From the NCBI GenBank assembly GCA_002338895.1, contig DDJH01000198.1, positions 9,305-19,570 of the forward strand: a stretch of DNA of 10,266 nucleotides, given 5' to 3'. Positions 341 through 10,266 of the stretch are shown here, piece after piece. Numbering within the stretch: the stretch's first letter is position 1; every line of letters begins with the position of its first letter. Both the position numbers and the translations under genes were made by a program. Below the pieces are notes generated by a model. The model did no database searches. It was given only the letters and a program-made list of their open reading frames with translations, and had not been told where the DNA came from. The DNA comes from Lentisphaeria bacterium UBA1829 (GTDB lineage Bacteria; Verrucomicrobiota; Lentisphaeria; Victivallales; UBA1829).

Positions 341-1978
341 TCATCCGTTTCTGTTCGGCGTGCTGTGCGAGCGGTGAAGATTGCGCCGGACCAGAGGAAT
401 CAGGATGTCCAGAAGTTCCGCATCCTCCAGATCCTCTTCGTTGACATACAGCGAGACCGAGCCCAGAGATTCCATCTCCCGGAAGAAATCGTATCCTCCG
501 CGATAGGAGAACAGCCCGTATGAGACATGGTCGGGATCAATCGGCAGTCCGTATCCGACGGCTTTGGCAATCCGGGCACGGATCCGCATCTCCTCCAGTC
601 CATGTTCCGGCAGAGCCGTGAAGTCGTTCAGACGGATCATCGTCTGCCACGGCGTGAAATACGGATTCAGACTCTGGCAGAGGATCTGCGCATCGGGTTT
701 GACCGCCGTCATCGCCTCGTACACCAACCGGAAGCGCTCCCGGATGAACCCGACTCCGCAGACGGAGCACTGACCCGGAACTTTCGGAACCAGAGCGGTG
801 AAATCATATTTGATTCCGTCGGCATTGAAGCATCCCGGATCGTCGGAGAGAAGGCGGTGCGCATCTTCCCGGAGGCGGTTTCGCCATGCGGGGGAATCCG
901 GATTCTGCATGTTTCCGTCGAGCTTCTCCTCTTCCGGCAGTCCGGACGCATAGGTGCAGAGCCAGAGCAGAACACGCCGTCCCTCCGCATGGCGCCGGTC
1001 GATGAACGCCCGGAGATCCGGCCACTTCCGCGGATCGCTTTTCCAGATCCCGTGCGTTTTCGGATCACCCCAGAAGTCGTCCAGAATCAGAATGTCGAAA
1101 TCGAGCCCTTTGGATTCGAGCTGGCGGATCATGGATTCATACCGCTCCTCCGTGCAGAGATCCTGACGGCTCTTCTGAAGCCGCCAGCCGCACAGCGCCA
1201 CTCCGGTGTGCCATGCCGGATTCTTCCGGAGAGACGGCCGGAAGCGCCCCGTGCTCACGATTGTCTCCGCGTGGCGCGTGAAGATTTCGAATTCGTCCGC
1301 CAGATCGAATCGCAGGACCAGAGCGGGGACCGAAAGGGTGCGGCACGGTGCTTTGTACCCTTTGTAACCGACATTCCAGCAGAAATCGTGTCCGCTTCCC
1401 GGCAGGGAGTCAAATTCATAGAAATCGAATTCATGATCTTCCGGCTCCAGTTCGAATCCCATCCAGCGTCCGTTTTCCTGACGGGCGGAGAAGCACCAGG
1501 GCGCCGGAGACATCAGGCCGGGGGAGAGCTGGACAGGTTCTTCCCGTCGCAGATAGTGTCCGATCGGAAGGGTCCGGTCCGGCCACGAGGGCGTAAAGAG
1601 CCGGTCGCTGAACAGTTTCGAGCCGCGCCCCAGATAGAAGTTGTCCGGAAGAAAGACCTCGCCTCCCGTCCGCTCCGCTTTGAATTCAATCCGGTCGGAA
1701 TAGAACGTCAGAGTGGTCCGGATCGAATTTTCGCATCGGAAGACCAGTTCCATTTTTTCTCTTTCGCCGCAGCATTCCTCCGGTTCCTGTTCGAGAACAA
1801 AGCGCCCCGGCGCAAGCTCCGTCCCCGCGTCCGGGGAGAGAAGCAGATCCGCATACGGGGAGCCTTTCGCAAAACAGCGCAGAATCCCGTCCCGGCTTCG
1901 AAGAAGACAGGTGTAGCTTTCCGTATGCAAATCCATCGTTCCGTGGTCCCGGTGATAACAGCAGGTAAATGACCTCAT
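341..1978 (-). CDS. Glycoside hydrolase, GH36/GH31-like TIM-barrel (alpha-galactosidase superfamily)
   Basis: A 545-residue protein with a beta-rich N-terminal half (about 1-245) and a TIM-barrel half (about 255-510). Barrel landmarks match clan GH-D/GH31-type retaining glycosidases: D-I-L-I-L-D-D-F-W around 295-303, W-K-S-D-P-R-K-W-P-D at 312-321 (the 'D..KFPD' motif), H330-x-x-G-x-x-V-x-L-W, then G-I-K-Y-D-F with D392 as probable nucleophile, and R-L-N-D with D452 as candidate acid/base. It would release an alpha-linked sugar, perhaps alpha-galactose, from an oligosaccharide; the exact specificity is not readable. No signal peptide is seen, so it is probably cytoplasmic. The start at 1978 is preferred over an internal ATG at 1936 because GGAAAGGGA sits seven bases upstream. 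A strong promoter lies at 2038-2066. It is divergent from lacI and upstream of the GH127-like gene, which suggests a LacI-controlled catabolic operon. The N-terminal half is too divergent for me to name a GH family with certainty. Confidence 0.8.
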   Translation of the reverse strand: MRSFTCCYHRDHGTMDLHTESYTCLLRSRDGILRCFAKGSPYADLLLSPDAGTELAPGRFVLEQEPEECCGEREKMELVFRCENSIRTTLTFYSDRIEFKAERTGGEVFLPDNFYLGRGSKLFSDRLFTPSWPDRTLPIGHYLRREEPVQLSPGLMSPAPWCFSARQENGRWMGFELEPEDHEFDFYEFDSLPGSGHDFCWNVGYKGYKAPCRTLSVPALVLRFDLADEFEIFTRHAETIVSTGRFRPSLRKNPAWHTGVALCGWRLQKSRQDLCTEERYESMIRQLESKGLDFDILILDDFWGDPKTHGIWKSDPRKWPDLRAFIDRRHAEGRRVLLWLCTYASGLPEEEKLDGNMQNPDSPAWRNRLREDAHRLLSDDPGCFNADGIKYDFTALVPKVPGQCSVCGVGFIRERFRLVYEAMTAVKPDAQILCQSLNPYFTPWQTMIRLNDFTALPEHGLEEMRIRARIAKAVGYGLPIDPDHVSYGLFSYRGGYDFFREMESLGSVSLYVNEEDLEDAELLDILIPLVRRNLHRSHSTPNRNG

Positions 1979-2037
1979 GAAAAATTCCCTTTCCTGAAAA
2001 ATTCGATTCCTTCCCGAGCTGTTCTTTATATTATAAT

Positions 2038-2066
2038 ATTATACAGGATCCATCGCCATCCGGCAA
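2038..2066 (-). promoter_or_regulatory. Sigma70-type promoter of the glycosidase operon
   Basis: Reading the minus strand, TTGCCG (2061-2066) and a perfect TATAAT (2038-2043) are separated by 17 bases. Transcription would start near 2031, leaving about 50 bases of leader before the ATG at 1978. The -10 lies in a perfect 12 bp palindrome, TATAATATTATA (2032-2043), and a second minus-strand TATAAT occurs at 2030-2035. The palindrome may simply be AT-rich promoter sequence or may be a repressor target. Confidence 0.6.
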
Positions 2067-2108
2067 GAGCGGATCTCCGAAAAGAACTGAAACAAAATGA
2101 ACAATGAC

Positions 2109-2137
2109 TTGACAGAGCAAAGAGATGGTGGCATTGT
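2109..2137 (+). promoter_or_regulatory. Probable lacI promoter with overlapping inverted repeat
   Basis: A perfect -35, TTGACA (2109-2114), is followed 17 bases on by a weak -10, CATTGT (2132-2137). The start would be near 2144, giving a leader of about 20 bases that still contains the Shine-Dalgarno AAGGAG (2148-2153). ACAATG (2101-2106) and CATTGT (2132-2137) form an inverted pair that brackets the -35 and covers the -10, as an autoregulatory operator might. The -35 is convincing; the -10 and the operator idea are weak. Confidence 0.4.
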
Positions 2138-2162
2138 ATCTTTCCGGAAGGAGAATCGATCG

Positions 2163-3122
2163 ATGACTCGGAAAGTTACAATGGAGGATCTTGCCCGGGA
2201 GGCGGGATGTTCGCGTCCGCAGGTGTCGCGCGCGTTCAACGGCAAGGCGAATGTCGCTCCGGAGGTCCGCGCCCGGATTCTGGAGGCCGCCGCAAAACTC
2301 AACTACCGGAATACGGCAAACCGGCACCGGATCCGCATTGCCGTCATATCCAACGGAGTCGGAGGAAGTTACACCCAGCGGATTCTGGATGCTCTGATGA
2401 AAAGCGCTCTTCGGCGAAACTGGATTTTCCAGATCGTCCCGGAGCAGAATCTGGAGCAGATTTCTCCATATTTTTACGATGGAGCCGTTTCTCTGATCTA
2501 CAATCAGGTCTGGGCGCGGAAGTGGGTGGAGGAGCGTTCCATTCCGCTGGTCATGGTCAACAGCTACGGGACCGCGTTCGACCGGATCTGCTCCGTGGAT
2601 CCGGATCCTCTCCAGGGAAGCCGGATCGTGCTCCGCCATCTGAAAAGACTGGGACACCGGAAAATCGCACGGGTCCATTTTGTCGGCGAAATGCAGACAA
2701 CCTACCGTCGCGGAGAGAAAGAGTTCCTGCAGGCTGCCGCACAGCTGAATCTGGGGGATTCCGTCCGCAATTTCCAGTTCTCCTCCCCGTCGACTCTGAA
2801 CGATGCCCTCCGTTCCGTCCTTGCCGAAAAATTCACCGCCATTTACATGATTCATCAGAATCTGGCTCTTCCCGCCGCCGCTGCGATTCAGCAGACGGGG
2901 TGCCGTATCCCGGAAGAGTGTTCCCTGATCACCTATGAACTTCCCGGAATCTCCGAGTACCTGACTCCACCCCATACGACCGTGGATTTCGATTATGAGA
3001 CGATCGCAAACCGCGCTCTGGACGAGCTTCGTCTGCGGATGCTCGGCAAAGGGACCGACGGCGGATCCATCCGGATTCCGAATTTCCTGATCATCCGCTC
3101 TTCGACCGGCCCCTGCCGATAA
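2163..3122 (+). CDS. LacI-family transcriptional regulator
   Basis: A 319-residue repressor-type regulator. Residues 4-25 form the LacI helix-turn-helix (V-T-M-E-D-L-A-R-E-A-G, then S-R-P-Q-V-S-R-A-F-N-G), and residues 56-319 form the periplasmic-binding-protein-like sugar-sensing domain ending in the usual R-S-S-T motif. The start at 2163 is chosen because AAGGAG sits nine bases upstream and the protein then begins at the family's usual point; an in-frame ATG at 2097 would add 22 unlikely residues and lies upstream of the promoter. Two oddities: the second-helix positions that usually read the operator are Arg-Pro instead of the common Tyr-Gln or Thr-Thr, and the hinge helix after L-N-Y is shortened and degenerate (R-N-T-A-N-R-H-R runs straight into the first core strand). 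It is divergent from the GH36-like gene and is its probable regulator, with an unidentified sugar as effector. Confidence 0.93.
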   Translation: MTRKVTMEDLAREAGCSRPQVSRAFNGKANVAPEVRARILEAAAKLNYRNTANRHRIRIAVISNGVGGSYTQRILDALMKSALRRNWIFQIVPEQNLEQISPYFYDGAVSLIYNQVWARKWVEERSIPLVMVNSYGTAFDRICSVDPDPLQGSRIVLRHLKRLGHRKIARVHFVGEMQTTYRRGEKEFLQAAAQLNLGDSVRNFQFSSPSTLNDALRSVLAEKFTAIYMIHQNLALPAAAAIQQTGCRIPEECSLITYELPGISEYLTPPHTTVDFDYETIANRALDELRLRMLGKGTDGGSIRIPNFLIIRSSTGPCR

Positions 3123-3135
3123 CCCATCCCTGCAG

Positions 3136-3495
3136 TCACTGAACCGGGGCGCCGAACCGGTTTTCTTCCAGATCGCCGGGCAGAATGTACAGAATCAGCA
3201 GAATGATCGCTCCGAGACACGGAAGAAGATAGAGCAGCTGCAGCCATCCGCTGAGATTCCGGTCATGAAGACGGCGGGCTCCTACACTGAGACACGGAAG
3301 AAGAACCGCAAGACTGTACAACCCTCCCAGAATCCGCACGCCGATGATGGCGTCAACAATCCCCAGAATGAGGGAGATGATGAAGTTGAACAGGAAAAAG
3401 TACCAGAACTCTTTCCGTCCCGCCCGTCCTTCAAAGCAGATGTACTTGTTCCTGAAGATGTCCGCCGCGTTGCTGATCAGTGTTCTCTGTTCCAT
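3136..3495 (-). CDS. DUF805 family small membrane protein (YhaH-like)
   Basis: A 119-residue integral membrane protein typical in size for DUF805. Signatures are F-E-G-R-A-G-R-K-E-F-W at 21-31, A-R-R-L-H-D-R-N-L-S-G-W at 73-84, and a C-terminal P-G-D-x-x-x-N-R-F-G. Three or four hydrophobic stretches are visible (about 31-51, 54-72 and 83-105). The molecular function of the family is unknown and nothing here adds to it. The start at 3495 has an AGAGG Shine-Dalgarno about eight bases upstream. It follows the DeoR gene in the same direction after 156 bases, with its own possible promoter at 3568-3595, and converges on lacI with 13 bases between the stop codons. Its placement between two regulators looks incidental rather than functional. 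Confidence 0.93.
   Translation of the reverse strand: MEQRTLISNAADIFRNKYICFEGRAGRKEFWYFFLFNFIISLILGIVDAIIGVRILGGLYSLAVLLPCLSVGARRLHDRNLSGWLQLLYLLPCLGAIILLILYILPGDLEENRFGAPVQ
3141..3166 (+). terminator. Possible Rho-independent terminator of lacI
   Basis: AACCGG (3142-3147), a nine-base loop, CCGGTT (3157-3162) and then TTCTT form a GC-rich hairpin with a T-rich tail starting 19 bases after the lacI stop. It lies inside the last codons of the convergent DUF805 gene, which starts its overlap-free end only 13 bases away. The stem is short and the T-run is imperfect, so this is tentative. Confidence 0.4.
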
Positions 3496-3535
3496 GGCTG
3501 TTTCCTCTCTGTTCGATGTTTTGAATTGTTTTGAG

Positions 3536-3554
3536 CCGATCTTTGCAAAGTCGG
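3536..3554. repeat. Nested dyad in the DUF805 leader
   Basis: CCGA, T, CTTTGCAAAG, TCGG. The 10 bp core (3541-3550) is a perfect palindrome and the outer CCGA/TCGG arms continue it with a single unpaired T. It could be an operator downstream of the proposed promoter or a hairpin in the leader. The plus-strand copy is followed by TCTTTT, but no plus-strand gene ends here, so a terminator role is unlikely. Confidence 0.4.
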
Positions 3555-3567
3555 TCTTTTCAGAACT

Positions 3568-3595
3568 AATCTATGTCCTCTGGAGCGTTTTTCAA
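3568..3595 (-). promoter_or_regulatory. Possible promoter of the DUF805 gene
   Basis: On the minus strand TTGAAA (3590-3595) and TAGATT (3568-3573) are 16 bases apart. The start would be near 3561, so the leader would include the dyad at 3536-3554. The match is moderate (about four or five of six in each box). Confidence 0.35.
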
Positions 3596-3651
3596 GTCTC
3601 TCCGGAGCTTTGCGGAACTTTTTTACGGATTTCTGAGAGAGAAAAGACGGA

Positions 3652-4374
3652 TCAGTCACTGAGAATGCGGTCGAAATCCGCGCGCGTTCCGAGCCGGAAG
3701 AGCCCGGAGCGGTTGAATTTGCTGCGGTCGGCCAGAAGATACCGTTTCTTCGCCACCTCCAGAACCTTCAGAAGCAAAGTCGAGTGATACTCGTGGTTGG
3801 TCGTGACCAGATCGCCGTCGATTCCGAACGCGGAGATGAAGGCTTTGGAGATCGAGAGCCTCTCCAGTTCCCGGATTGCCGCCTGTCCGAGAAACGCATT
3901 CAGCTGAAGGTCAAACGTCCCTCCCAGCGAAATGAGAACATAATGCGGCGGAAATTTGTGAAAATTCTGGATGATCATCGCGGAATTCGTCACAATCGTC
4001 AGATTGGAAAACGAGGATTCCAGAAGGCGTTCCGCCAGAAAGAACACCGTTGTCGACGAGTCCAGAAACACGATGTCCCCTTCCGAAATTTCGCGCATCG
4101 CCAGTTCGGAAATCCGGTGCTTGTGCTTCTGGTTCCAGTTGATGCGCTCCTGAAAGGTGGAGGAAAGAACGGTCATCTTGTCCGTTGCCTCCACCGGATC
4201 GATATAGGCGACGCCCCCGTGGACCTTTCGCGCCTGATTGTTCCGCACCAGACTGGCGATATCCCGGTGAATGGTCGCCGGTGAGACTCCGAAATGCTCC
4301 ATCAGCTCGTTGACCGAACAGTATTTCTTCTGTTTCAGATAGTCGATGATGGCAAAGGTTCTCAAATTCTTCAT
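3652..4374 (-). CDS. DeoR-family transcriptional regulator of sugar metabolism
   Basis: A 240-residue regulator of normal family length. The N-terminal winged helix (about 1-60) includes Y-C-S-V-N-E-L-M-E-H-F-G-V-S-P-A-T-I-H-R-D-I (18-39) and the wing signature R-K-V-H-G-G-V. The C-terminal domain is the DeoR sugar-phosphate sensor, related to ribose-5-phosphate isomerase, with F-L-D-S-S-T-T corresponding to the usual D-x-G-T-T, N-S-A, G-G-T-F-D and a final A-D-R-S-K-F near the C-terminus. The start at 4374 is preferred to an ATG at 4389 because GAGGGA lies seven bases upstream of it, while the earlier ATG has no ribosome site. Four AATGAGA repeats lie upstream (4431-4488), suggesting autoregulation. 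The gene lies downstream of the ADP-ribosylglycohydrolase-like gene on the same strand and may respond to a phosphorylated sugar from that pathway; the target sugar is not readable. Confidence 0.94.
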   Translation of the reverse strand: MKNLRTFAIIDYLKQKKYCSVNELMEHFGVSPATIHRDIASLVRNNQARKVHGGVAYIDPVEATDKMTVLSSTFQERINWNQKHKHRISELAMREISEGDIVFLDSSTTVFFLAERLLESSFSNLTIVTNSAMIIQNFHKFPPHYVLISLGGTFDLQLNAFLGQAAIRELERLSISKAFISAFGIDGDLVTTNHEYHSTLLLKVLEVAKKRYLLADRSKFNRSGLFRLGTRADFDRILSD

Positions 4375-4404
4375 ATCCGGTTCCCTCATTCATTTGGCAG
4401 GGAT

Positions 4405-4432
4405 ACTATATCCCGGAATCCCCGTTCTGCAA
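4405..4432 (-). promoter_or_regulatory. Probable deoR promoter with dyad over the -10
   Basis: On the minus strand a good -10, TATAGT (4405-4410), is preceded after 16 bases by a weak -35, TTGCAG (4427-4432). The -10 sits at the centre of a perfect 6-3-6 inverted repeat, GGGATACTATATCCC (4400-4414). The first AATGAGA repeat (4431-4437) overlaps the -35. A regulator bound at either element would block transcription. Confidence 0.42.
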
Positions 4433-4488
4433 TGAGAAAAAAATGAGAATTTTGAAAAAAATGAGAGATTCCGTTCAGAAAAATGAGA
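4431..4488. repeat. Four direct AATGAGA repeats, candidate DeoR operator
   Basis: Identical AATGAGA heptamers start at 4431, 4442, 4460 and 4482, mostly preceded by runs of A and, for the first and last, by CCGTTC (4422-4427 and 4471-4476). Start-to-start spacings are 11, 18 and 22 bases. Operators of DeoR-family proteins are often arrays of short direct repeats next to the regulator's own promoter, so this is the natural target of the adjacent gene product. A reversed CTCATT copy occurs at 4385-4390 near the ribosome site. Confidence 0.55.
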
Positions 4489-4490
4489 AA

Positions 4491-4527
4491 TCCGCATCCG
4501 ATAAGCTAGAATTCTTCCAGATGCGGA
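4491..4527 (-). terminator. Probable terminator of the ADP-ribosylglycohydrolase-like gene
   Basis: TCCGCATC (4491-4498) and GATGCGGA (4520-4527) form a perfect eight-base stem around a 21-base loop. Reading the minus strand the stem is followed by TTTCTCATTTTT. It lies 35 bases after the stop codon at 4562. A smaller hairpin, ACAGG-ACAA-CCTGT (4539-4552), sits between the two. The loop is long and the T-run interrupted, so termination may be partial. The tail overlaps the last AATGAGA repeat. Confidence 0.5.
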
Positions 4528-4561
4528 CTCCCTTGTTTACAGGACAACCTGTTTCAATTTC

Positions 4562-6013
4562 TCACACTTCAAACGCGTGGGGAAGCCAGTGATTGGCCGT
4601 GTCGGCGATTCCGAACACCAGTTCAGCAGATTTCATGTCCGGACTGGCCGGAGCCAGAGCAATCTGCAGGGAATGGCTTCCCTGTTCGAGTTGCAGCTCC
4701 GCAAGCTGGTTCTGCATGGCCCGGTGGAAGGCGGGGAGCATGCCGCCGCTTTCGCGTCCGAATCGGAAAACTCCGTCCACTCCGACCTGCAGATTCGCCG
4801 GTGTGCAGACCAGAAGACGGATCTTCTGCGCACGTTCCAGGTGAAACTTTATTTCCAGAACCCACATGGAATTTCCGGGAAGAGAGGTAAAGTCGATCGT
4901 GGAGCAGCTTCCCGGCAGGAGAATGTTTTCCGGATTGTCCATCGGGATCGGATGGAACTTCCGGAAGTCGGCGGCGAACCACGGGTGGAAGATGGACCGT
5001 CTGGCCGGAATGGCGTAGGCGGCCGGATCAAAGGGGGGAAGCGGGGGAACGGAGAGCGTGACGGTCTCTCGAAGCGAAAGCACCAGATTGGTGAACTTTT
5101 CGAGCGTGTCGGGCGGCCGGATTCCGGTGATCTCCGGACTGACGACAAGGGAGTGCCCGATCGGTTTCAGCCACTCCTCCGGGATCCCGGCAGGATTGAG
5201 GATTCCGAGGATGGCGCCGATGGTGGCTCCGGTGCAGTCGGCATCCTGTCCGCAGTTCACGGCAAGACAGATGCTTTTTCCAAAGTCGCCGCCGCCCAGC
5301 AGAAGGGCCATCGTGACAAACGGAAGATTCATCTTTACATCGGTGAAGTTGACGTTGCCGTATTTTTTCATGATGTTGGTCCGGACCGATTCCCATGCCG
5401 CGTCCTTGTCGCACCAGGCGACCGTGTCGCGAATGGCGCAGGCGAGGGTGGAATCCGCCGGAATGTGTTCCAGCGCCATCCGGATCAGCTCCCGCGGATC
5501 GGAGTGCGTAAAGGCCAGACTTTCGAGCGCGGCGAGGAATTGTTCGGCATAGATTCCGTTTCCGGCGTGATCGACGCACGCGTCTTCAAACGCATACTGG
5601 ACGGCGAGAGCGGGATTGCCCGGCGCAAGACAGGCCCAGAGTTCGCTGCGGATGGCGGCGCCGAGTCCGTCGGTGAACCAGTTGTCGTAGGATCCGCTGT
5701 ACGGAGCGGGGATGCCCCGTCGGAGATTGCGGATGGCCACGCCGTATTCGTCGAAGGGAAAGGCGATGCACTCCGGCCAGGCTTTTGCGAAGTTGTCCCG
5801 GCAGACGACGCCTTTCCAGTCCGTCGCCAGTTTGCAGGCCCAGAGAACCTGAAGATCGAGGTCGTCGTTCGGCATCATTGTGGTCGGGACCGGATCGTAA
5901 TAGGTGAGGTTCAGCGGACCGGCGCTTCCCTCCCACGGTTGTCCCAGAGTTCCGCCGACGGCCTTTCCGAGCCAGGCTCCCAGCACTTTTTCCCTGTATT
6001 CGCTGTTTGTCAT
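4562..6013 (-). CDS. ADP-ribosylglycohydrolase-fold protein with C-terminal beta-rich domain
   Basis: A 483-residue protein. Residues 1-315 are the all-helical ADP-ribosylglycohydrolase (DraG/ARH) fold: V-L-G-A-W-L-G-K-A-V-G-G-T-L-G-Q-P-W-E at 10-28, P-N-D-D-L-D at 48-53 where the family usually has T-D-D-T, and G-Q-D-A-D-C-T-G-A-T-I-G-A-I-L-G at 255-270 for the usual G-x-D-x-D-T. The acidic residues D50, D51, D257 and D259 suggest the dimetal site is largely kept. Residues from about 340 look like an appended beta-sandwich (alternating hydrophobic strands), not part of the basic fold. Family members cleave ADP-ribose from proteins or related ribosides, but many carbohydrate-cluster paralogues have no tested substrate, and this looks like one of those. 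The start has GGAGG nine bases upstream, plus a strong promoter and a dyad at the expected transcription start. The next gene on the strand is the DeoR regulator. Confidence 0.92.
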   Translation of the reverse strand: MTNSEYREKVLGAWLGKAVGGTLGQPWEGSAGPLNLTYYDPVPTTMMPNDDLDLQVLWACKLATDWKGVVCRDNFAKAWPECIAFPFDEYGVAIRNLRRGIPAPYSGSYDNWFTDGLGAAIRSELWACLAPGNPALAVQYAFEDACVDHAGNGIYAEQFLAALESLAFTHSDPRELIRMALEHIPADSTLACAIRDTVAWCDKDAAWESVRTNIMKKYGNVNFTDVKMNLPFVTMALLLGGGDFGKSICLAVNCGQDADCTGATIGAILGILNPAGIPEEWLKPIGHSLVVSPEITGIRPPDTLEKFTNLVLSLRETVTLSVPPLPPFDPAAYAIPARRSIFHPWFAADFRKFHPIPMDNPENILLPGSCSTIDFTSLPGNSMWVLEIKFHLERAQKIRLLVCTPANLQVGVDGVFRFGRESGGMLPAFHRAMQNQLAELQLEQGSHSLQIALAPASPDMKSAELVFGIADTANHWLPHAFEV

Positions 6014-6333: not shown

Positions 6334-7278
6334 ATGCAGAAAAATGCCAGACTGTGGATCGCCGGACATACCGGAATGGTCGGCAGTGCACTTCTTCGAA
6401 AATTGACGGAAAACGGATATTCCAATTTCCTGCTGAGAAGTCATTCGGAGCTGGATCTTCGAGATGCTTCCGCCGTGGAAACGTTCGTGCAGAAGGAACG
6501 CCCGGAACTGGTGATTCTCGCCGCCGCGAAGGTCGGCGGAATTTCGGCAAACCGCGAATTCATGGCGGAATTCCTGCTGGAGAATCTGCAGATTCAGAAC
6601 AATGTGATCTCCTCCGCATGGAAACACGGCGTGAAGAAACTCTGTTTTCTCGCAAGCAACTGCATCTATCCGCGGGAGGCGGCACAGCCGTTCCGGGAGG
6701 AGTCCCTGCTGGATGGTCCGCCGGAAACGACCAATGAAGGATATGCGCTGGCGAAGATCGCCGGTCTCCGGCTCTGTCAGTATCTGAGCCGGCAGTACGG
6801 ACTGCGGACCATTTCGCTGATTCCCTGCTGCCTGTATGGAAAAAACGATCATTTCGAGCCGGAACGCTCGCATGTGATGGCAGCAATGGTCAAACGGTTC
6901 TGCGATGCGGCGGATTCCGGAGTGAACGAGGTGGTCTGCTGGGGAAGTGGAACGCCGAAACGGGAGTTCCTCAATGTGGATGACTTCGCAGAGATCGCCT
7001 GCAATTTGTTTGAGACTTATGAGGATCCCGGGGTGCTGAATGTCGGTTCCGCAGAGGAAATCGGAATGCGCGAACTGGCGGAACGGGTTGCCGCATGCGC
7101 GGGGTATCGCGGAACGATCCGGTGGGATCGTTCAAAACCGGATGGAATAGCCCGTAAAATACTGGACAGTTCCCGGCTTCATGCGTGGTCGTCGTGGCGT
7201 CCGCGCATCGCTCTGGAGGAGGGGATTCGGAGCATGATCGAAGAGTACCGCTCCAAAAAGAGCAGGAGGCGCGTGTGA
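6334..7278 (+). CDS. fcl: GDP-L-fucose synthase-like NADPH epimerase/reductase
   Basis: A 314-residue extended short-chain dehydrogenase. The G-H-T-G-M-V-G nucleotide-binding loop is at 11-17, and the catalytic set of the fucose synthase family is complete: S108 and C110 in S-N-C-I-Y-P, Y137 and K141 in Y-A-L-A-K, H180. These fall one residue after E. coli Fcl S107, C109, Y136, K140 and H179, which supports the start at 6334; an ATG at 6304 would add ten residues. Neither start has a good ribosome site. The enzyme class epimerises C3/C5 and reduces C4 of a GDP-4-keto-6-deoxy sugar. W-G-S-G-x-x-x-R-E-F-L-x-V-D-D (203-217) is also typical. It is first in the operon; its stop overlaps the next start (GTGA). 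No GDP-mannose dehydratase is in the window. Given the neighbouring His-type dehydratase, it could be a ColC-like GDP-colitose synthase or act on a GDP-heptose, since these share the same scaffold. Confidence 0.92.
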   Translation: MQKNARLWIAGHTGMVGSALLRKLTENGYSNFLLRSHSELDLRDASAVETFVQKERPELVILAAAKVGGISANREFMAEFLLENLQIQNNVISSAWKHGVKKLCFLASNCIYPREAAQPFREESLLDGPPETTNEGYALAKIAGLRLCQYLSRQYGLRTISLIPCCLYGKNDHFEPERSHVMAAMVKRFCDAADSGVNEVVCWGSGTPKREFLNVDDFAEIACNLFETYEDPGVLNVGSAEEIGMRELAERVAACAGYRGTIRWDRSKPDGIARKILDSSRLHAWSSWRPRIALEEGIRSMIEEYRSKKSRRRV

Positions 7279-8261
7279 TTATTTCCAGAACGCCCTATCG
7301 GATCTCGTTTTTTGGAGGCGGAAGCGATTTTCCGGAGCACTTCCGGGAATATGGAAGCTGTGTGCTGGCGTGCGCAATCAATAAATACTGTTTTCTCAAT
7401 GTCCGGAAGCTGCCGCCGTTTTTTGAACACAAGTACCGGGCGGTGTATTCCAGAATCGAAAATATCCGGTCGGTGGAGGAGATTCAGCATCCGTCGATCC
7501 GTGCGGTGCTGCAATATTTCCATCTTCCGGAAGGGATTTCGGTGATTCACGACGGGGATATCCCCGCCCGCAGCGGAATCGGATCGAGTTCCGCATTCAC
7601 GGTGGGACTGCTGAACAGCATGTTTACTTTGACCGGATGTCACGCGTCCAAGCGGCTGCTGGCGGAAACGGCGATTCATATTGAACAGAATCTGATTCGG
7701 GAGACGGTCGGATGTCAGGATCAGATCAGCTGCGCGTACGGCGGGTTGAATTTGATTGAGTTTCATCGGAACGGATCGTTCCGGGTTCTTCCGCTGGATT
7801 TGGAGCAGCCGCGGCTGGATGAGCTGAAATCGTCGCTGCTGCTGATTTATACGGGGATCAGCCGGATCTCTTCCGAGGTGGCGGCGGAGCAGAAAAGCAG
7901 AATTCGGAACAATGCGGGGATGCTGAATGAACTGTCGGAAATGGCCCGCCGCGCGGATGAGCTGCTCCGGTCGGACCGGGAGCTTTCGGAGTTCGGACTT
8001 CTGCTGCATGAGGCGTGGAAGATCAAGAGAGGGCTTTCCACCAAGATTTCGTCGGAGTATCTGGACGGGGTTTATGAGAAGGCCCGTTCGGCGGGGGCGG
8101 TCGGAGGAAAACTGCTCGGAGCGGGAGCGGGAGGGTTCATGCTGTTTTTTGTCCCGCCCGATCGGAGAAGCCGCGTGCTGGAGGCGCTTGACGGTTTCCT
8201 GAATGTGCCGTTCGATTTTGAAATGGACGGATCCAGCATCGTATTCAACGGAGGAGCATGA
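7275..8261 (+). CDS. hddA: GHMP kinase, D-glycero-alpha-D-manno-heptose-7-phosphate kinase type
   Basis: A 328-residue GHMP-superfamily sugar kinase. The N-terminus I-I-S-R-T-P-Y-R-I-S-F-F-G-G-G-S-D (2-18) is characteristic of the HddA group, the phosphate-binding loop P-A-R-S-G-I-G-S-S-S-A is at 97-107, and the third motif G-G-K-L-L-G-A-G-A-G-G-F is at 277-288. HddA phosphorylates C1 of D-glycero-D-manno-heptose 7-phosphate on the route to GDP-heptose; related members phosphorylate fucose or other sugars at C1, so the substrate is inferred. The start is a GTG at 7275 with AGGAGG five bases upstream; the GTGA overlap with the previous stop implies translational coupling. The bisphosphatase, isomerase and guanylyltransferase needed for GDP-heptose are not in the window and might follow downstream. 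Confidence 0.9.
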   Translation: MIISRTPYRISFFGGGSDFPEHFREYGSCVLACAINKYCFLNVRKLPPFFEHKYRAVYSRIENIRSVEEIQHPSIRAVLQYFHLPEGISVIHDGDIPARSGIGSSSAFTVGLLNSMFTLTGCHASKRLLAETAIHIEQNLIRETVGCQDQISCAYGGLNLIEFHRNGSFRVLPLDLEQPRLDELKSSLLLIYTGISRISSEVAAEQKSRIRNNAGMLNELSEMARRADELLRSDRELSEFGLLLHEAWKIKRGLSTKISSEYLDGVYEKARSAGAVGGKLLGAGAGGFMLFFVPPDRRSRVLEALDGFLNVPFDFEMDGSSIVFNGGA

Positions 8262-8263
8262 TT

Positions 8264-9436
8264 ATGGAACCCTTTCCCCTGATGAACGATAATATTACCC
8301 GGGAGGATGTGGATGCGCTGATCGCATTTCTGGATACAATGCCGCGTCTGACCCAGTCGGCGCGCGTGGCGGAATTCGAGAAGGCGTGGAGCCGCTGGCT
8401 CGGTGTGAAGCACAGTGTGTTTGTGAATTCAGGGGCTTCGGCAAATTTTATCACGATCGGAGCTTTTCGATATTTGTATGGAGGGGGCGGAGAGATCATC
8501 GTTCCACCGCTGACATGGGTTTCCGACATCTCTTCCGTGCTTCTGCATGGATTCACCCCGGTGTTTGCGGATATTGATCCGAGGCATCTCGGGATGGCGG
8601 AGGAGAGAATTCTGGAGGCGGTGACCGACCGCACCCGGGCGGTATTCCTGACGCATGTGCAGGGATTCGACGCGTTGAGCGACCGTCTTCTGGCGGAGCT
8701 GAAGAGGAGAAACATCCCGCTGATCGAGGATGTCTGCGAATCGCATGGAGCCACGCATGGAGGACGGAAACTGGGGTCGTTCGGTCTTGCATCGGATTTT
8801 TCGTTCTACTTTGCCCATCACATGAGCACGATCGAGGGGGGGATGGTGTGCACGGACTCCGATGAATTTTACGAGGCGGTGCGGATGTACCGTTCGCACG
8901 GGATGGCGCGGGAGATCTCGGATCCGGAGAGGAAGAGAAAAATTGCGGAGGAGAATCCACAGGTGTCGCCGGATTTCACATTTCTGGTTCCGTCCTGCAA
9001 CTTTCGCGGAACGGAGATCGGAGGGGTTCTCGGACTCTCCCAGCTGAAGCGTCTGGATGAGAACAACCGGAGGAGGACGGAGAATTTTCACCGTTTTCTG
9101 AAGGAGATTGATCCGGAACGGTTCCGGACGGAATTCCGAGTGGAGGGCTCGTCCAACTATGCGTTTCCGCTGGTGATCCGGCAGAAGGACTTTGCGTTCC
9201 GCGACCGGCTGGAAAAGCGGATGCGGGAATACCGGATCGAATTCCGCCGCGGCAATGCCGGAGGAGGCAACCAGCTGCGGCAGCCGTATTTGAAGGGGAT
9301 CGTTCCGCCGGATGAATACCGGAAGTATCCTGAGGTGGAACATATTCATGATTTTGGGTATTATATAGGAAATTATCCGACGCTCCCGCCGGAACGCGTG
9401 TCGGAGCTCTGCCGGATACTCAATGAAGCGAGGTGA
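8264..9436 (+). CDS. DegT/DnrJ/EryC1-fold PLP enzyme with His replacing the catalytic Lys (ColD-like 3-dehydratase)
   Basis: A 390-residue fold-type I PLP protein, close to the 388 residues of ColD. V-N-S-G-A-S-A-N (54-61) binds the cofactor phosphate, E-D-V-C-E-S (155-160) supplies D156 for the pyridine nitrogen, and S-F-Y-F-A-H-H-M-S-T-I-E-G-G (180-193) aligns without gaps with the ArnB-type S-F-H-A-I-K-N-I-T-x-x-E-G-G. The aminotransferase lysine is therefore His185. This swap is the mark of sugar 3-dehydratases: ColD (H188) and the E1 enzyme of CDP-ascarylose synthesis. The clustered cysteines of the iron-sulfur E1/RfbH enzymes are absent, which favours a ColD-like mechanism using PLP and glutamate. 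The likely product is a 4-keto-3-deoxy nucleotide sugar. GGAGG at 8250-8254 is better spaced for the ATG at 8264 than for the ATG at 8258, which overlaps the kinase stop. Automatic annotation would probably call it an aminotransferase. Confidence 0.9.
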   Translation: MEPFPLMNDNITREDVDALIAFLDTMPRLTQSARVAEFEKAWSRWLGVKHSVFVNSGASANFITIGAFRYLYGGGGEIIVPPLTWVSDISSVLLHGFTPVFADIDPRHLGMAEERILEAVTDRTRAVFLTHVQGFDALSDRLLAELKRRNIPLIEDVCESHGATHGGRKLGSFGLASDFSFYFAHHMSTIEGGMVCTDSDEFYEAVRMYRSHGMAREISDPERKRKIAEENPQVSPDFTFLVPSCNFRGTEIGGVLGLSQLKRLDENNRRRTENFHRFLKEIDPERFRTEFRVEGSSNYAFPLVIRQKDFAFRDRLEKRMREYRIEFRRGNAGGGNQLRQPYLKGIVPPDEYRKYPEVEHIHDFGYYIGNYPTLPPERVSELCRILNEAR

Positions 9437-9440
9437 TGAG

Positions 9441-10266
9441 ATGAGTCAAACAATTCTGATGACAGGCGGAGGCGGCTATCTGGGATCCATTATGACGCCG
9501 TATCTGCTTTCACTCGGTTACGAAGTGACGGTGCTGGACAACTTTCTGTTCCGTCAGAACTCGCTGCTCGACTGTTGCGCCCATCCGAAATTTCATGTGG
9601 TTCGGGGCGACTGCCGGGATGAAGCGCTGATGAAGGAGCTGGTTCCCAGGTTTGATGTTCTTATTCCGCTGGCCGCCCTGGTGGGAGCGCCCCTCTGCGA
9701 GCAGGACAGAATCGGAGCGGTGACGGTGAACCGGGATGCGGTTCGGATGCTGGTGCGTCTGGCCTCTCCGTCGCAACAGATCGTCATGCCGATCACGAAC
9801 TCCGGATACGGGATTGGAGAGAGCGGGAAGTTCTGCACGGAGGAGACGCCTCTGCGACCGGTCTCCCTGTATGGACGAGTGAAGGTCGAGGCGGAGGAGG
9901 CGGTCCTTTCGCGGGAGAACAGTGTGAGTCTGCGCCTGGCGACGGTGTTCGGCGCGAGTCCCCGGATGCGTCTGGATCTTCTTGTGAACGATTTTGTCTA
10001 CCGGGCGGTGAACGATCGGGCGGTGGTGATTTTTGAAGGACATTTCAAACGCAACTACATCCATGTCCGGGATGTGGCGCGTGCGTTTGCGCATGTGATC
10101 GGGAATTTCTCCGCGATGAAGGGGAATGCATACAATGTGGGACTTTCGACGGCGAATCTGTCGAAACTGGAGTTGTGCGAGGTGATCCGGAAACACCTTC
10201 CCCGTTTTGTGTATCTGGAGTCGAAGATCGGAGAGGATCCGGACAAGCGCGATTATATTGTTTCCA
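9441..10266 (+). CDS. NAD-dependent epimerase/dehydratase (extended SDR), 3' end outside the window
   Basis: The first 275 codons of an extended short-chain dehydrogenase acting on nucleotide sugars. The Rossmann motif G-G-G-G-Y-L-G is at 9-15, an acidic residue D33 ends the second strand (NAD preference), T-N-S-G-Y-G is at 119-124, and the catalytic pair is Y144 and K148 in S-L-Y-G-R-V-K. R-N-Y-I-H-V-R-D-V-A (204-213) is the usual substrate-side motif. Most of a typical 310-340 residue protein is present. It starts four bases after the previous stop with AGGTG five bases upstream, so it belongs to the operon. It could be a 4-epimerase, 4,6-dehydratase or 4-ketoreductase; the sequence does not separate these. 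If it is a reductase it could finish the 3-deoxy sugar made by the PLP enzyme. Confidence 0.9.
   Translation, partial: MSQTILMTGGGGYLGSIMTPYLLSLGYEVTVLDNFLFRQNSLLDCCAHPKFHVVRGDCRDEALMKELVPRFDVLIPLAALVGAPLCEQDRIGAVTVNRDAVRMLVRLASPSQQIVMPITNSGYGIGESGKFCTEETPLRPVSLYGRVKVEAEEAVLSRENSVSLRLATVFGASPRMRLDLLVNDFVYRAVNDRAVVIFEGHFKRNYIHVRDVARAFAHVIGNFSAMKGNAYNVGLSTANLSKLELCEVIRKHLPRFVYLESKIGEDPDKRDYIVS

What the first reader, a model, noticed from the sequence alone, without database searches (positions are those of the whole stretch)
8801..8845. Histidine in place of the PLP Schiff-base lysine: a sugar 3-dehydratase likely to be mislabelled as an aminotransferase
Residues 180-193 of the DegT-fold protein align gap-free with the lysine motif of ArnB-type aminotransferases, and the lysine position is His185. 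Established knowledge: the same swap in ColD (GDP-4-keto-6-deoxy-D-mannose 3-dehydratase) and in E1 of CDP-ascarylose synthesis turns transamination into C3 dehydration. The cysteine cluster of E1 is missing, pointing to ColD chemistry. Inference: this operon makes a 3-deoxy sugar.
Basis: partly seen in the sequence, partly recalled or inferred. Interest (0 to 1): 0.7.

Follow-up and report, generated by a model that had tools for sequence, protein, structure and literature searches.

The report
Sugar 3-dehydratase in heptose-branching operon
The gene is most likely a sugar-deoxygenating enzyme, not an aminotransferase, and it sits in a widely shared gene set that probably turns an activated seven-carbon sugar into a 3-deoxy sugar with a two-carbon side branch.

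Summary
Window 8258-9436 encodes a DegT-fold protein with His (codon 8816-8818) where aminotransferases carry the PLP lysine. The position aligns with ColD His188, is invariant in aligned relatives, and no other lysine is invariant. A tree puts the protein in the ColD-type clade, apart from E1/RfbH (three of their conserved cysteines are absent) and from Lys-type aminotransferases. ColD-type C3-dehydratase is well supported. Across 51 related loci plus the window, the gene travels with the kinase, a nucleotidyltransferase, a Cj1427-like dehydrogenase, a B12-radical-SAM gene and a two-subunit ThDP enzyme: split transketolase in 30, PDH-E1-like in 13 (one has both). The two types replace each other between the same neighbours, once between loci whose dehydratases are 93% identical. 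Best reading: GDP-heptose to 4-keto to 3-deoxy-4-keto, then ThDP-dependent two-carbon branching at C4. Dehydratase class is strong, heptose substrate fairly good, branching inferred. Nothing was assayed. New variant of a known kind.

The parts
8264..9436 (+). DegT-fold, His-type (ColD-type) nucleotide-sugar 3-dehydratase; alternative start ATG 8258
8816..8818 (+). CAT codon of the presumed catalytic His (185 from ATG 8264, 187 from ATG 8258), in place of the PLP Schiff-base Lys; equals ColD His188
8801..8845 (+). Active-site motif SFYFAHHMSTIEGGM (the finding's coordinates)
7275..8261 (+). HddA-like GHMP kinase (D-glycero-D-manno-heptose 7-phosphate 1-kinase type), start taken by comparison with L001
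   Evidence: NCBIfam HddA model is the best hit, 132.7 bits but under its cut-off of 600; the L001 protein's best PDB match is a heptose kinase, 3k85, 1.1e-38
9441..10266 (+). Cj1427-like NAD-dependent GDP-heptose C4-dehydrogenase, cut by the window end
6334..7278 (+). GDP-L-fucose-synthase-like (Fcl/ColC/Cj1428 type) epimerase-reductase, start taken by comparison with L001
   Evidence: NCBIfam Fcl 377 bits, cut-off 500; PDB 7ll6 4e-91

Best explanation
The protein is a PLP/PMP-dependent, ColD-type C3-dehydratase. Glutamate loads PMP, the 4-keto sugar forms a ketimine, His185 acts as base and helps expel the C3 hydroxyl, and hydrolysis gives a 3-deoxy-4-keto sugar (mechanism carried over from ColD). 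Its natural substrate is most likely GDP-D-glycero-4-keto-D-lyxo-heptose, made by the adjacent Cj1427-like C4-dehydrogenase from GDP-D-glycero-D-manno-heptose, which the HddA-like kinase and a guanylyltransferase-like enzyme supply. The 3-deoxy-4-keto-heptose is then most likely the ketone acceptor for a two-subunit ThDP enzyme (split transketolase in the sister locus, PDH-E1-like alpha/beta in other lineages), which adds a two-carbon unit at C4 to give a branched nine-carbon 3-deoxy sugar. The Fcl-like enzyme, where present, and a B12-radical-SAM enzyme finish it. Shown: sequences, motif, clade, gene sets, swap of ThDP enzymes. Inferred: every activity, the substrate and the branch.
For: Dehydratase class; review PMC8987622 (passages) says the catalytic Lys is replaced by His in these 3-dehydratases and that the [2Fe-2S] cluster of E1 and SpnQ is absent in ColD. 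Substrate: Cj1427 match; 32 loci and the window give a Cj1427 hit of 48.8-68.2% identity, L028 only a 46-aa fragment; HddA; GmhB-like phosphatase fused to the nucleotidyltransferase in L005 and the same HAD stretch in L002, L003, L006 and L024. PMC10680097 (abstract and passages) mixed Cj1427 with a C. jejuni C3-dehydratase in vitro and obtained GDP-D-glycero-3-deoxy-4-keto-heptose, calling the 3-deoxy-heptoses derived from it novel; here homologues of both lie side by side. gmd is annotated beside the dehydratase in five ColD-type outgroup loci, L073, L074, L075, L079 and L080; no family row has a gmd-like hit above 31.4% identity. Branching: TK in 30 and E1 in 13 of 52, both only in L025; both types between the same neighbours in four arrangements; L010/L038 dehydratases 93% identical with TK versus E1 between HddA and rSAM; 6 label changes on the tree, 3 forced by well-supported branches; 15 of 17 TK-cassette genomes have a further transketolase-N match at E <= 1e-20, 10 of them with a full-length frame of 661-754 aa. 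Azospirillum lipoferum p6 pairs a different ColD-type enzyme with Cj1427-like, E1 alpha and E1 beta genes. PMC12247030 (passages and section 2.3): ThDP enzymes of YerE and E1 type, and by proposal split-gene transketolases, branch keto sugars; YerE acts on CDP-3,6-dideoxy-4-keto-glucose.
Against: The kinase and nucleotidyltransferase fall below the curated cut-offs. A GmhA-model match was found in all 20 genomes tested but never over its cut-off. gmd occurs elsewhere in 14 of those 20 genomes, so GDP-4-keto-6-deoxymannose would be available in many. L018 has a gmd-like gene (147 bits, cut-off 415) between HddA and rSAM and no Cj1427-like gene in its stretch, and L047 has a dehydratase-like SDR directly after the gene besides its Cj1427-like one: some members may act on a 6-deoxy substrate. 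10 of 52 rows show no ThDP gene; several are cut by contig ends, the window among them, but L026 has about 10 kb on both sides and L009, L021, L035, L047 and L049 about 9-10 kb on one side. 19 of 52 rows lack the Cj1427-like gene and 22 lack Fcl within reach. The window itself contains no ThDP, rSAM or nucleotidyltransferase gene; these come from L001 and other loci. The AlphaFold model is weak exactly at the motif (mean pLDDT 61 for residues 181-190), so it does not place the His with confidence. Ser187 of ColD is Ala here.
Confidence: 0.57

Rival explanations
1. ColD proper: it removes the C3 hydroxyl of GDP-4-keto-6-deoxymannose and, with the Fcl-like ColC-type partner in the window, makes GDP-L-colitose.
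For: Best PDB match is ColD; an Fcl-like gene lies two genes upstream; gmd is found elsewhere in 14 of 20 genomes tested, including that of sister L001.
Against: No gmd-like hit in the window or the L001 stretch; the dehydrogenase next door is Cj1427-like; HddA-like kinase in 44 of 52 rows; gmd not found in the three SAR11 genomes tested, which may be incomplete; the colitose route as described in PMC8987622 (passages) names no ThDP or radical-SAM enzyme.
Confidence: 0.12
2. A 3-deoxy-heptose without a branch: the 4-keto group is reduced by the Fcl-like enzyme, while the ThDP pair makes some other metabolite.
For: Fcl-like gene in the window and in 30 of 52 rows in all; C. jejuni C4-reductases reduce 3-deoxy-4-keto-heptoses in vitro (PMC10680097, passages).
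Against: A ThDP gene is more constant than Fcl (42 of 52 against 30 of 52), is present where Fcl is missing (for example L007, L008, L043), and changes type between the same neighbours; in L005 the E1 pair sits in a run of nine genes that are assigned by cluster, none of them an E2.
Confidence: 0.2
3. Still an aminotransferase that works without the lysine.
For: SpnQ, another His enzyme, shows aminotransferase activity when no reductase is present (PMC8987622, passages); Pfam and NCBI names say aminotransferase.
Against: Clade and residues are ColD-type; the same review says transferase activity was not observed for ColD and E1 under similar conditions.
Confidence: 0.05

Closest known systems
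ColD, GDP-4-keto-6-deoxy-D-mannose 3-dehydratase (2gms, 3b8x)
   Same: His188 for Lys, no cysteines at the three E1/RfbH columns, same clade, best sequence and fold match; shares W85, H212, R216 and N370 (Met-8264 numbering), which differ in RfbH
   Different: 26-29% identical; Ala for Ser187; no gmd beside it in the window; heptose-type genes instead
C. jejuni HS:5/HS:11 GDP-heptose C3-dehydratase
   Same: ColD-like enzyme acting on GDP-4-keto-heptoses (PMC10440746, PMC10680097; abstracts and passages)
   Different: That enzyme is 62-67% identical to two known ColD enzymes and in its own cluster follows a 4,6-dehydratase; ours is in a separate clade from ColD and lies beside a Cj1427-like dehydrogenase. 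The two were not compared by sequence here
C. jejuni GDP-heptose pathway (HddA, HddC, Cj1427, Cj1428)
   Same: Homologues of Cj1427 (57%) and HddA, and an Fcl-like reductase
   Different: By the passages read, the C4-dehydrogenase is in serotypes HS:2, 3, 4, 23/36 and 33 and the 3-dehydratase in HS:5, 11, 45 and 60, so no named serotype has both; no ThDP enzyme or radical SAM is mentioned there
Yersiniose A route (3-dehydratase E1, then YerE; the E1 step recalled)
   Same: Logic: a 3-deoxy-4-keto nucleotide sugar receives a two-carbon branch from a ThDP enzyme (PMC12247030, passages)
   Different: CDP-hexose and decarboxylase-type YerE there; GDP-heptose and transketolase/E1 type predicted here
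Streptomyces split-gene transketolases (miharamycin, amipurimycin) and E1-type branching enzymes of antibiotic clusters
   Same: The same two ThDP enzyme types, proposed or shown to branch keto sugars (PMC12247030, section 2.3 and passages)
   Different: The 13 transketolase candidates named there all come from Streptomycetes; here other phyla, and both types occur in one slot

Membership tests
ColD-type (Fe-S-free, His) nucleotide-sugar 3-dehydratases | His in place of the PLP lysine | tested here: met
ColD-type (Fe-S-free, His) nucleotide-sugar 3-dehydratases | No [2Fe-2S] cysteine motif | tested here: met
   three RfbH cysteine columns empty of Cys in 21 of 21 rows; a fourth is kept, as in ColD
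ColD-type (Fe-S-free, His) nucleotide-sugar 3-dehydratases | Groups with ColD apart from E1/RfbH and Lys-type enzymes | tested here: met
   100/98 for the clade of 30 rows; the family itself 100/100
ColD-type (Fe-S-free, His) nucleotide-sugar 3-dehydratases | PLP- and glutamate-dependent C3 deoxygenation of a 4-keto sugar | not testable with these tools
   needs an assay
ColD proper (colitose pathway) | gmd in the same cluster | tested here: not met
   No gmd-like hit in the window or L001 stretch; in 52 rows no hit above 31.4% identity, the strongest in L018 (147 of 415 bits); gmd annotated beside five ColD-type outgroups
E1/RfbH CDP-type 3-dehydrase | [2Fe-2S] cysteines | tested here: not met
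E1/RfbH CDP-type 3-dehydrase | Over the NCBIfam RfbH cut-off (423 bits) | tested here: not met
   149.8 bits
DegT aminotransferases (ArnB, PseC, PerA) | Schiff-base lysine | tested here: not met
GDP-heptose modification pathway (Cj1427 type) | Cj1427 homologue with its TNSGYG/YxxxK residues | tested here: met
GDP-heptose modification pathway (Cj1427 type) | Heptose-specific kinase, guanylyltransferase and GmhA over curated cut-offs | tested here: inconclusive
   matches, but under the cut-offs
ThDP-dependent branched-sugar pathways | Ketone-accepting ThDP enzyme in the cluster | tested here: inconclusive
   ThDP enzyme genes in 42 of 52 rows; acceptor unknown
Yersiniose-type pathway | YerE-type decarboxylase | not tested
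   no YerE reference was searched

The most novel reading that the evidence does not exclude
A widespread, undescribed nucleotide-sugar pathway: GDP-D-glycero-D-manno-heptose is oxidised at C4, deoxygenated at C3 and then branched at C4 by a two-carbon ThDP transfer, giving a GDP-linked nine-carbon 3-deoxy branched sugar for surface polysaccharides, with glycoloyl (transketolase) and acetyl (E1) versions made by swapping one enzyme, and further changed by a B12-radical-SAM enzyme. It would be a natural home of the 3-deoxy-4-keto-heptose that the paper read made by mixing enzymes of different serotypes, and a set of ketone-accepting transketolases outside Streptomyces.
Probability: 0.5. Interest if true: 0.75.

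Novelty: new variant of a known kind. Interest (0 to 1): 0.6.

Why it matters
It corrects a labelling error: the names seen for close relatives are either aminotransferase or CDP-type 3-dehydrase. If the pathway reading holds, it predicts a new class of branched surface sugar in bacteria with ten phylum labels, SAR11 marine bacteria among them. It also makes an open question directly testable: the 2025 review read here says split-gene transketolases have been proposed to add carbon to ketones but that none has been characterised in vitro. Here, close cassettes that differ in the ThDP enzyme form a ready-made comparison.

Tried and rejected
E1/RfbH membership: rejected on cysteines, model score and tree. 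Lysine elsewhere in the site: no invariant lysine column. 4,6-dehydratase role for the neighbouring NAD gene: rejected on the missing Glu and the Cj1427 match. L052, returned as a relative at 26% identity, proved Lys-type (ACFSFYATKTITTGEGG) and was dropped before the counts and the tree; in the tree it sits in the Lys group. First ORF picking misread high-GC loci, so neighbours were re-called by tblastn; that panel contains the loci's own proteins, so the cross-locus clustering carries the homology. A motif script for the NAD gene failed in 33 of 34 rows and was replaced by alignment A2. In the 46-row tree four extra copies (L053, L057, L058, L060) were left out before building, while L054 and L056, from the same genomes as L012 and L016, stayed in; the ColD row is residues 15-375 only, and the program warned that the bootstrap had not quite settled. 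Structure: good fold match but weak confidence at the motif, so not used as evidence for where the His sits; the second-look lists cannot exclude unlisted families. Papers: the nine searches showed no description of this gene set in their listings. The nearest was a polysaccharide cluster of Actinoplanes (wps-2) with split transketolase and DegT genes, named without a sugar pathway in the two passages read (PMC13390465). The papers on ColD and E1 structure and on Cj1427 were not held; what is said about them comes from the reviews and PDB titles or is recalled.

Full report
What is there. The ORF at 8258-9436 is a complete DegT-fold protein. It lies in a tight operon: Fcl-like 6334-7278, HddA-like kinase 7275-8261, the dehydratase, and a NAD-dependent sugar dehydrogenase from 9441 that runs off the window. 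The starts of the neighbours are taken by comparison with sister locus L001, which is collinear with the window at 82-90% DNA identity over its three main blocks. The left half of the window holds a GH31-like ORF, regulators and an ADP-ribosylglycohydrolase-like ORF.

The label. Of the 120 listed relatives 16 carry a printed name: 6 say DegT aminotransferase and 10 say CDP-type 3-dehydrase or E1 (my count). Neither fits well. No NCBIfam model for ColD appeared among the hits.

The substrate. [quoted passage not shown] It lacks the Glu of 4,6-dehydratases: 15 of 15 aligned rows have TNSGYG with the Y and K. In PMC10680097 (abstract and passages) Cj1427 oxidises C4 of GDP-D-glycero-D-manno-heptose, and adding the HS:5 C3-dehydratase gave GDP-D-glycero-3-deoxy-4-keto-heptose, under a heading of novel products. 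The L001 kinase's best PDB match is a heptose kinase. In L005 the nucleotidyltransferase is fused to a GmhB-like phosphatase, and L002, L003, L006 and L024 carry the same HAD stretch. Against this, the heptose-specific models are not reached at their cut-offs, and gmd lies elsewhere in 14 of 20 genomes tested. Four of 52 rows gave a hit to gmd queries, all at 26-31% identity: in L018 it is a gmd-like gene (147 bits, cut-off 415) between HddA and rSAM with no Cj1427-like gene in the stretch, and in L047 a dehydratase-like SDR directly after our gene's relative. So some members may use a 6-deoxy substrate.

The neighbourhood. One scan of genome contigs returned 52 loci. L052 is Lys-type and was dropped. 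With the window this leaves 52 rows. Within 10 kb and above 200 bits: HddA-like kinase 44, radical SAM 38, Cj1427-like 33, nucleotidyltransferase 30, Fcl-like 30, split transketolase (either half) 30, E1-like (either half) 13. Among the 40 rows with at least 10 kb of flank in all: ThDP enzyme 35, radical SAM 34, kinase 36, Cj1427-like 30, nucleotidyltransferase 29, Fcl 23. The scan used peptide patterns from our protein, one of which contains the HH motif, so these loci are biased towards it; the protein search was not restricted to that motif. Record titles map to ten phylum labels, many of them metagenome bins whose labels may be loose.

The ThDP enzyme. Transketolase and E1 occur together only in L025, where the E1 beta piece is about 9 kb away. 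Ten rows have neither; several are cut by contig ends, but L026 has about 10 kb on both sides, and L009, L021, L035, L047 and L049 have 9-10 kb on one side. Complete adjacent pairs number 26 for transketolase (25 loci) and 9 for E1 (9 loci). Both kinds occur between the same neighbours: HddA-x-Fcl, HddA-x-rSAM, HddA-x-dehydratase and Fcl-x-dehydratase. In L010 and L038 the dehydratases are 93% identical while the ThDP enzyme differs. On a 52-row tree with 29 rows labelled TK and 11 E1 (12 unlabelled, 7-kb limit) the label needs 6 changes, 3 forced by well-supported branches. The cassette transketolase is unlikely to be the housekeeping one: 15 of 17 genomes with it have another transketolase-N match at E <= 1e-20 and 10 have a full-length frame of 661-754 aa; G205 and G212 have no other. 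Nearest solved proteins are a split-chain transketolase and PDH E1 alpha.

An independent case. Azospirillum lipoferum plasmid p6 has a His-type enzyme that groups with ColD itself, not with our family, beside a Cj1427-like gene 72.6% identical to the nearest cassette gene, E1 alpha 54% and E1 beta 58%, with a HAD-IIIA gene and a SIS-domain gene within 17 kb. So a different ColD-type enzyme has joined the same kinds of partner.

Inference. A 3-deoxy-4-keto sugar followed by a ThDP two-carbon transfer is the logic of yersiniose A (PMC12247030, passages). Two unlike two-carbon ThDP enzymes filling one slot, next to an enzyme that makes such a ketone, point to two-carbon branching at C4. The review states that split-gene transketolases have been proposed for this in miharamycin and amipurimycin, that 13 candidates all come from Streptomycetes, and that none has been characterised in vitro (section 2.3). 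The role of the B12-radical-SAM enzyme is open; its nearest solved relative is an apramycin oxidoreductase, 6fd2 (recalled as AprD4).

Verdict. Observation confirmed. Dehydratase class about 0.9, heptose substrate about 0.75, two-carbon branch about 0.6, by my judgement. New variant of a known kind.

Noticed in passing
L074 6019-7152 and L079 5974-7167: Cyanophages S-CAM7 and ACG-2014f carry a run of gmd, Fcl-like and His-type (ColD-like) genes, so phages may encode a colitose-type sugar route; the phage enzymes branch next to our family in the tree.
   Followed up: partly
L076 / L085 (Azospirillum lipoferum plasmid p6): A ColD-sister His enzyme with Cj1427-like, E1 alpha, E1 beta, HAD-IIIA and SIS genes; Cj1427-like genes also on four other Azospirillum plasmids, one Sinorhizobium and one Solidesulfovibrio plasmid.
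   Followed up: partly
L018 12304-13314 and L047 11164-12144: gmd- or dehydratase-like SDR genes inside or beside the cassette; L018 lacks a Cj1427-like gene in its stretch, a possible 6-deoxy variant.
   Followed up: partly
L016 1872-6190: Three radical-SAM-like ORFs in a row upstream of the dehydratase.
   Followed up: no
L027 8047-13344: Two split transketolase pairs flank one dehydratase.
   Followed up: no
L012 11939-13051: A second DegT gene just downstream; a DegT gene found in that genome (L061) groups with the Lys-type enzymes.
   Followed up: partly
window 341-6013: GH31-like ORF, LacI-type and DeoR-type regulators, DUF805 and ADP-ribosylglycohydrolase-like ORFs, a different gene set upstream of the sugar operon; largely collinear with L001, except a gap at about 3118-3648.
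   Followed up: no
L040, L043, L045, L047: SAR11 (Pelagibacteraceae) genomes carry the family; L040, L043 and L045 have the transketolase-type cassette without a strong Fcl hit, and gmd was not found in their genomes.
   Followed up: partly
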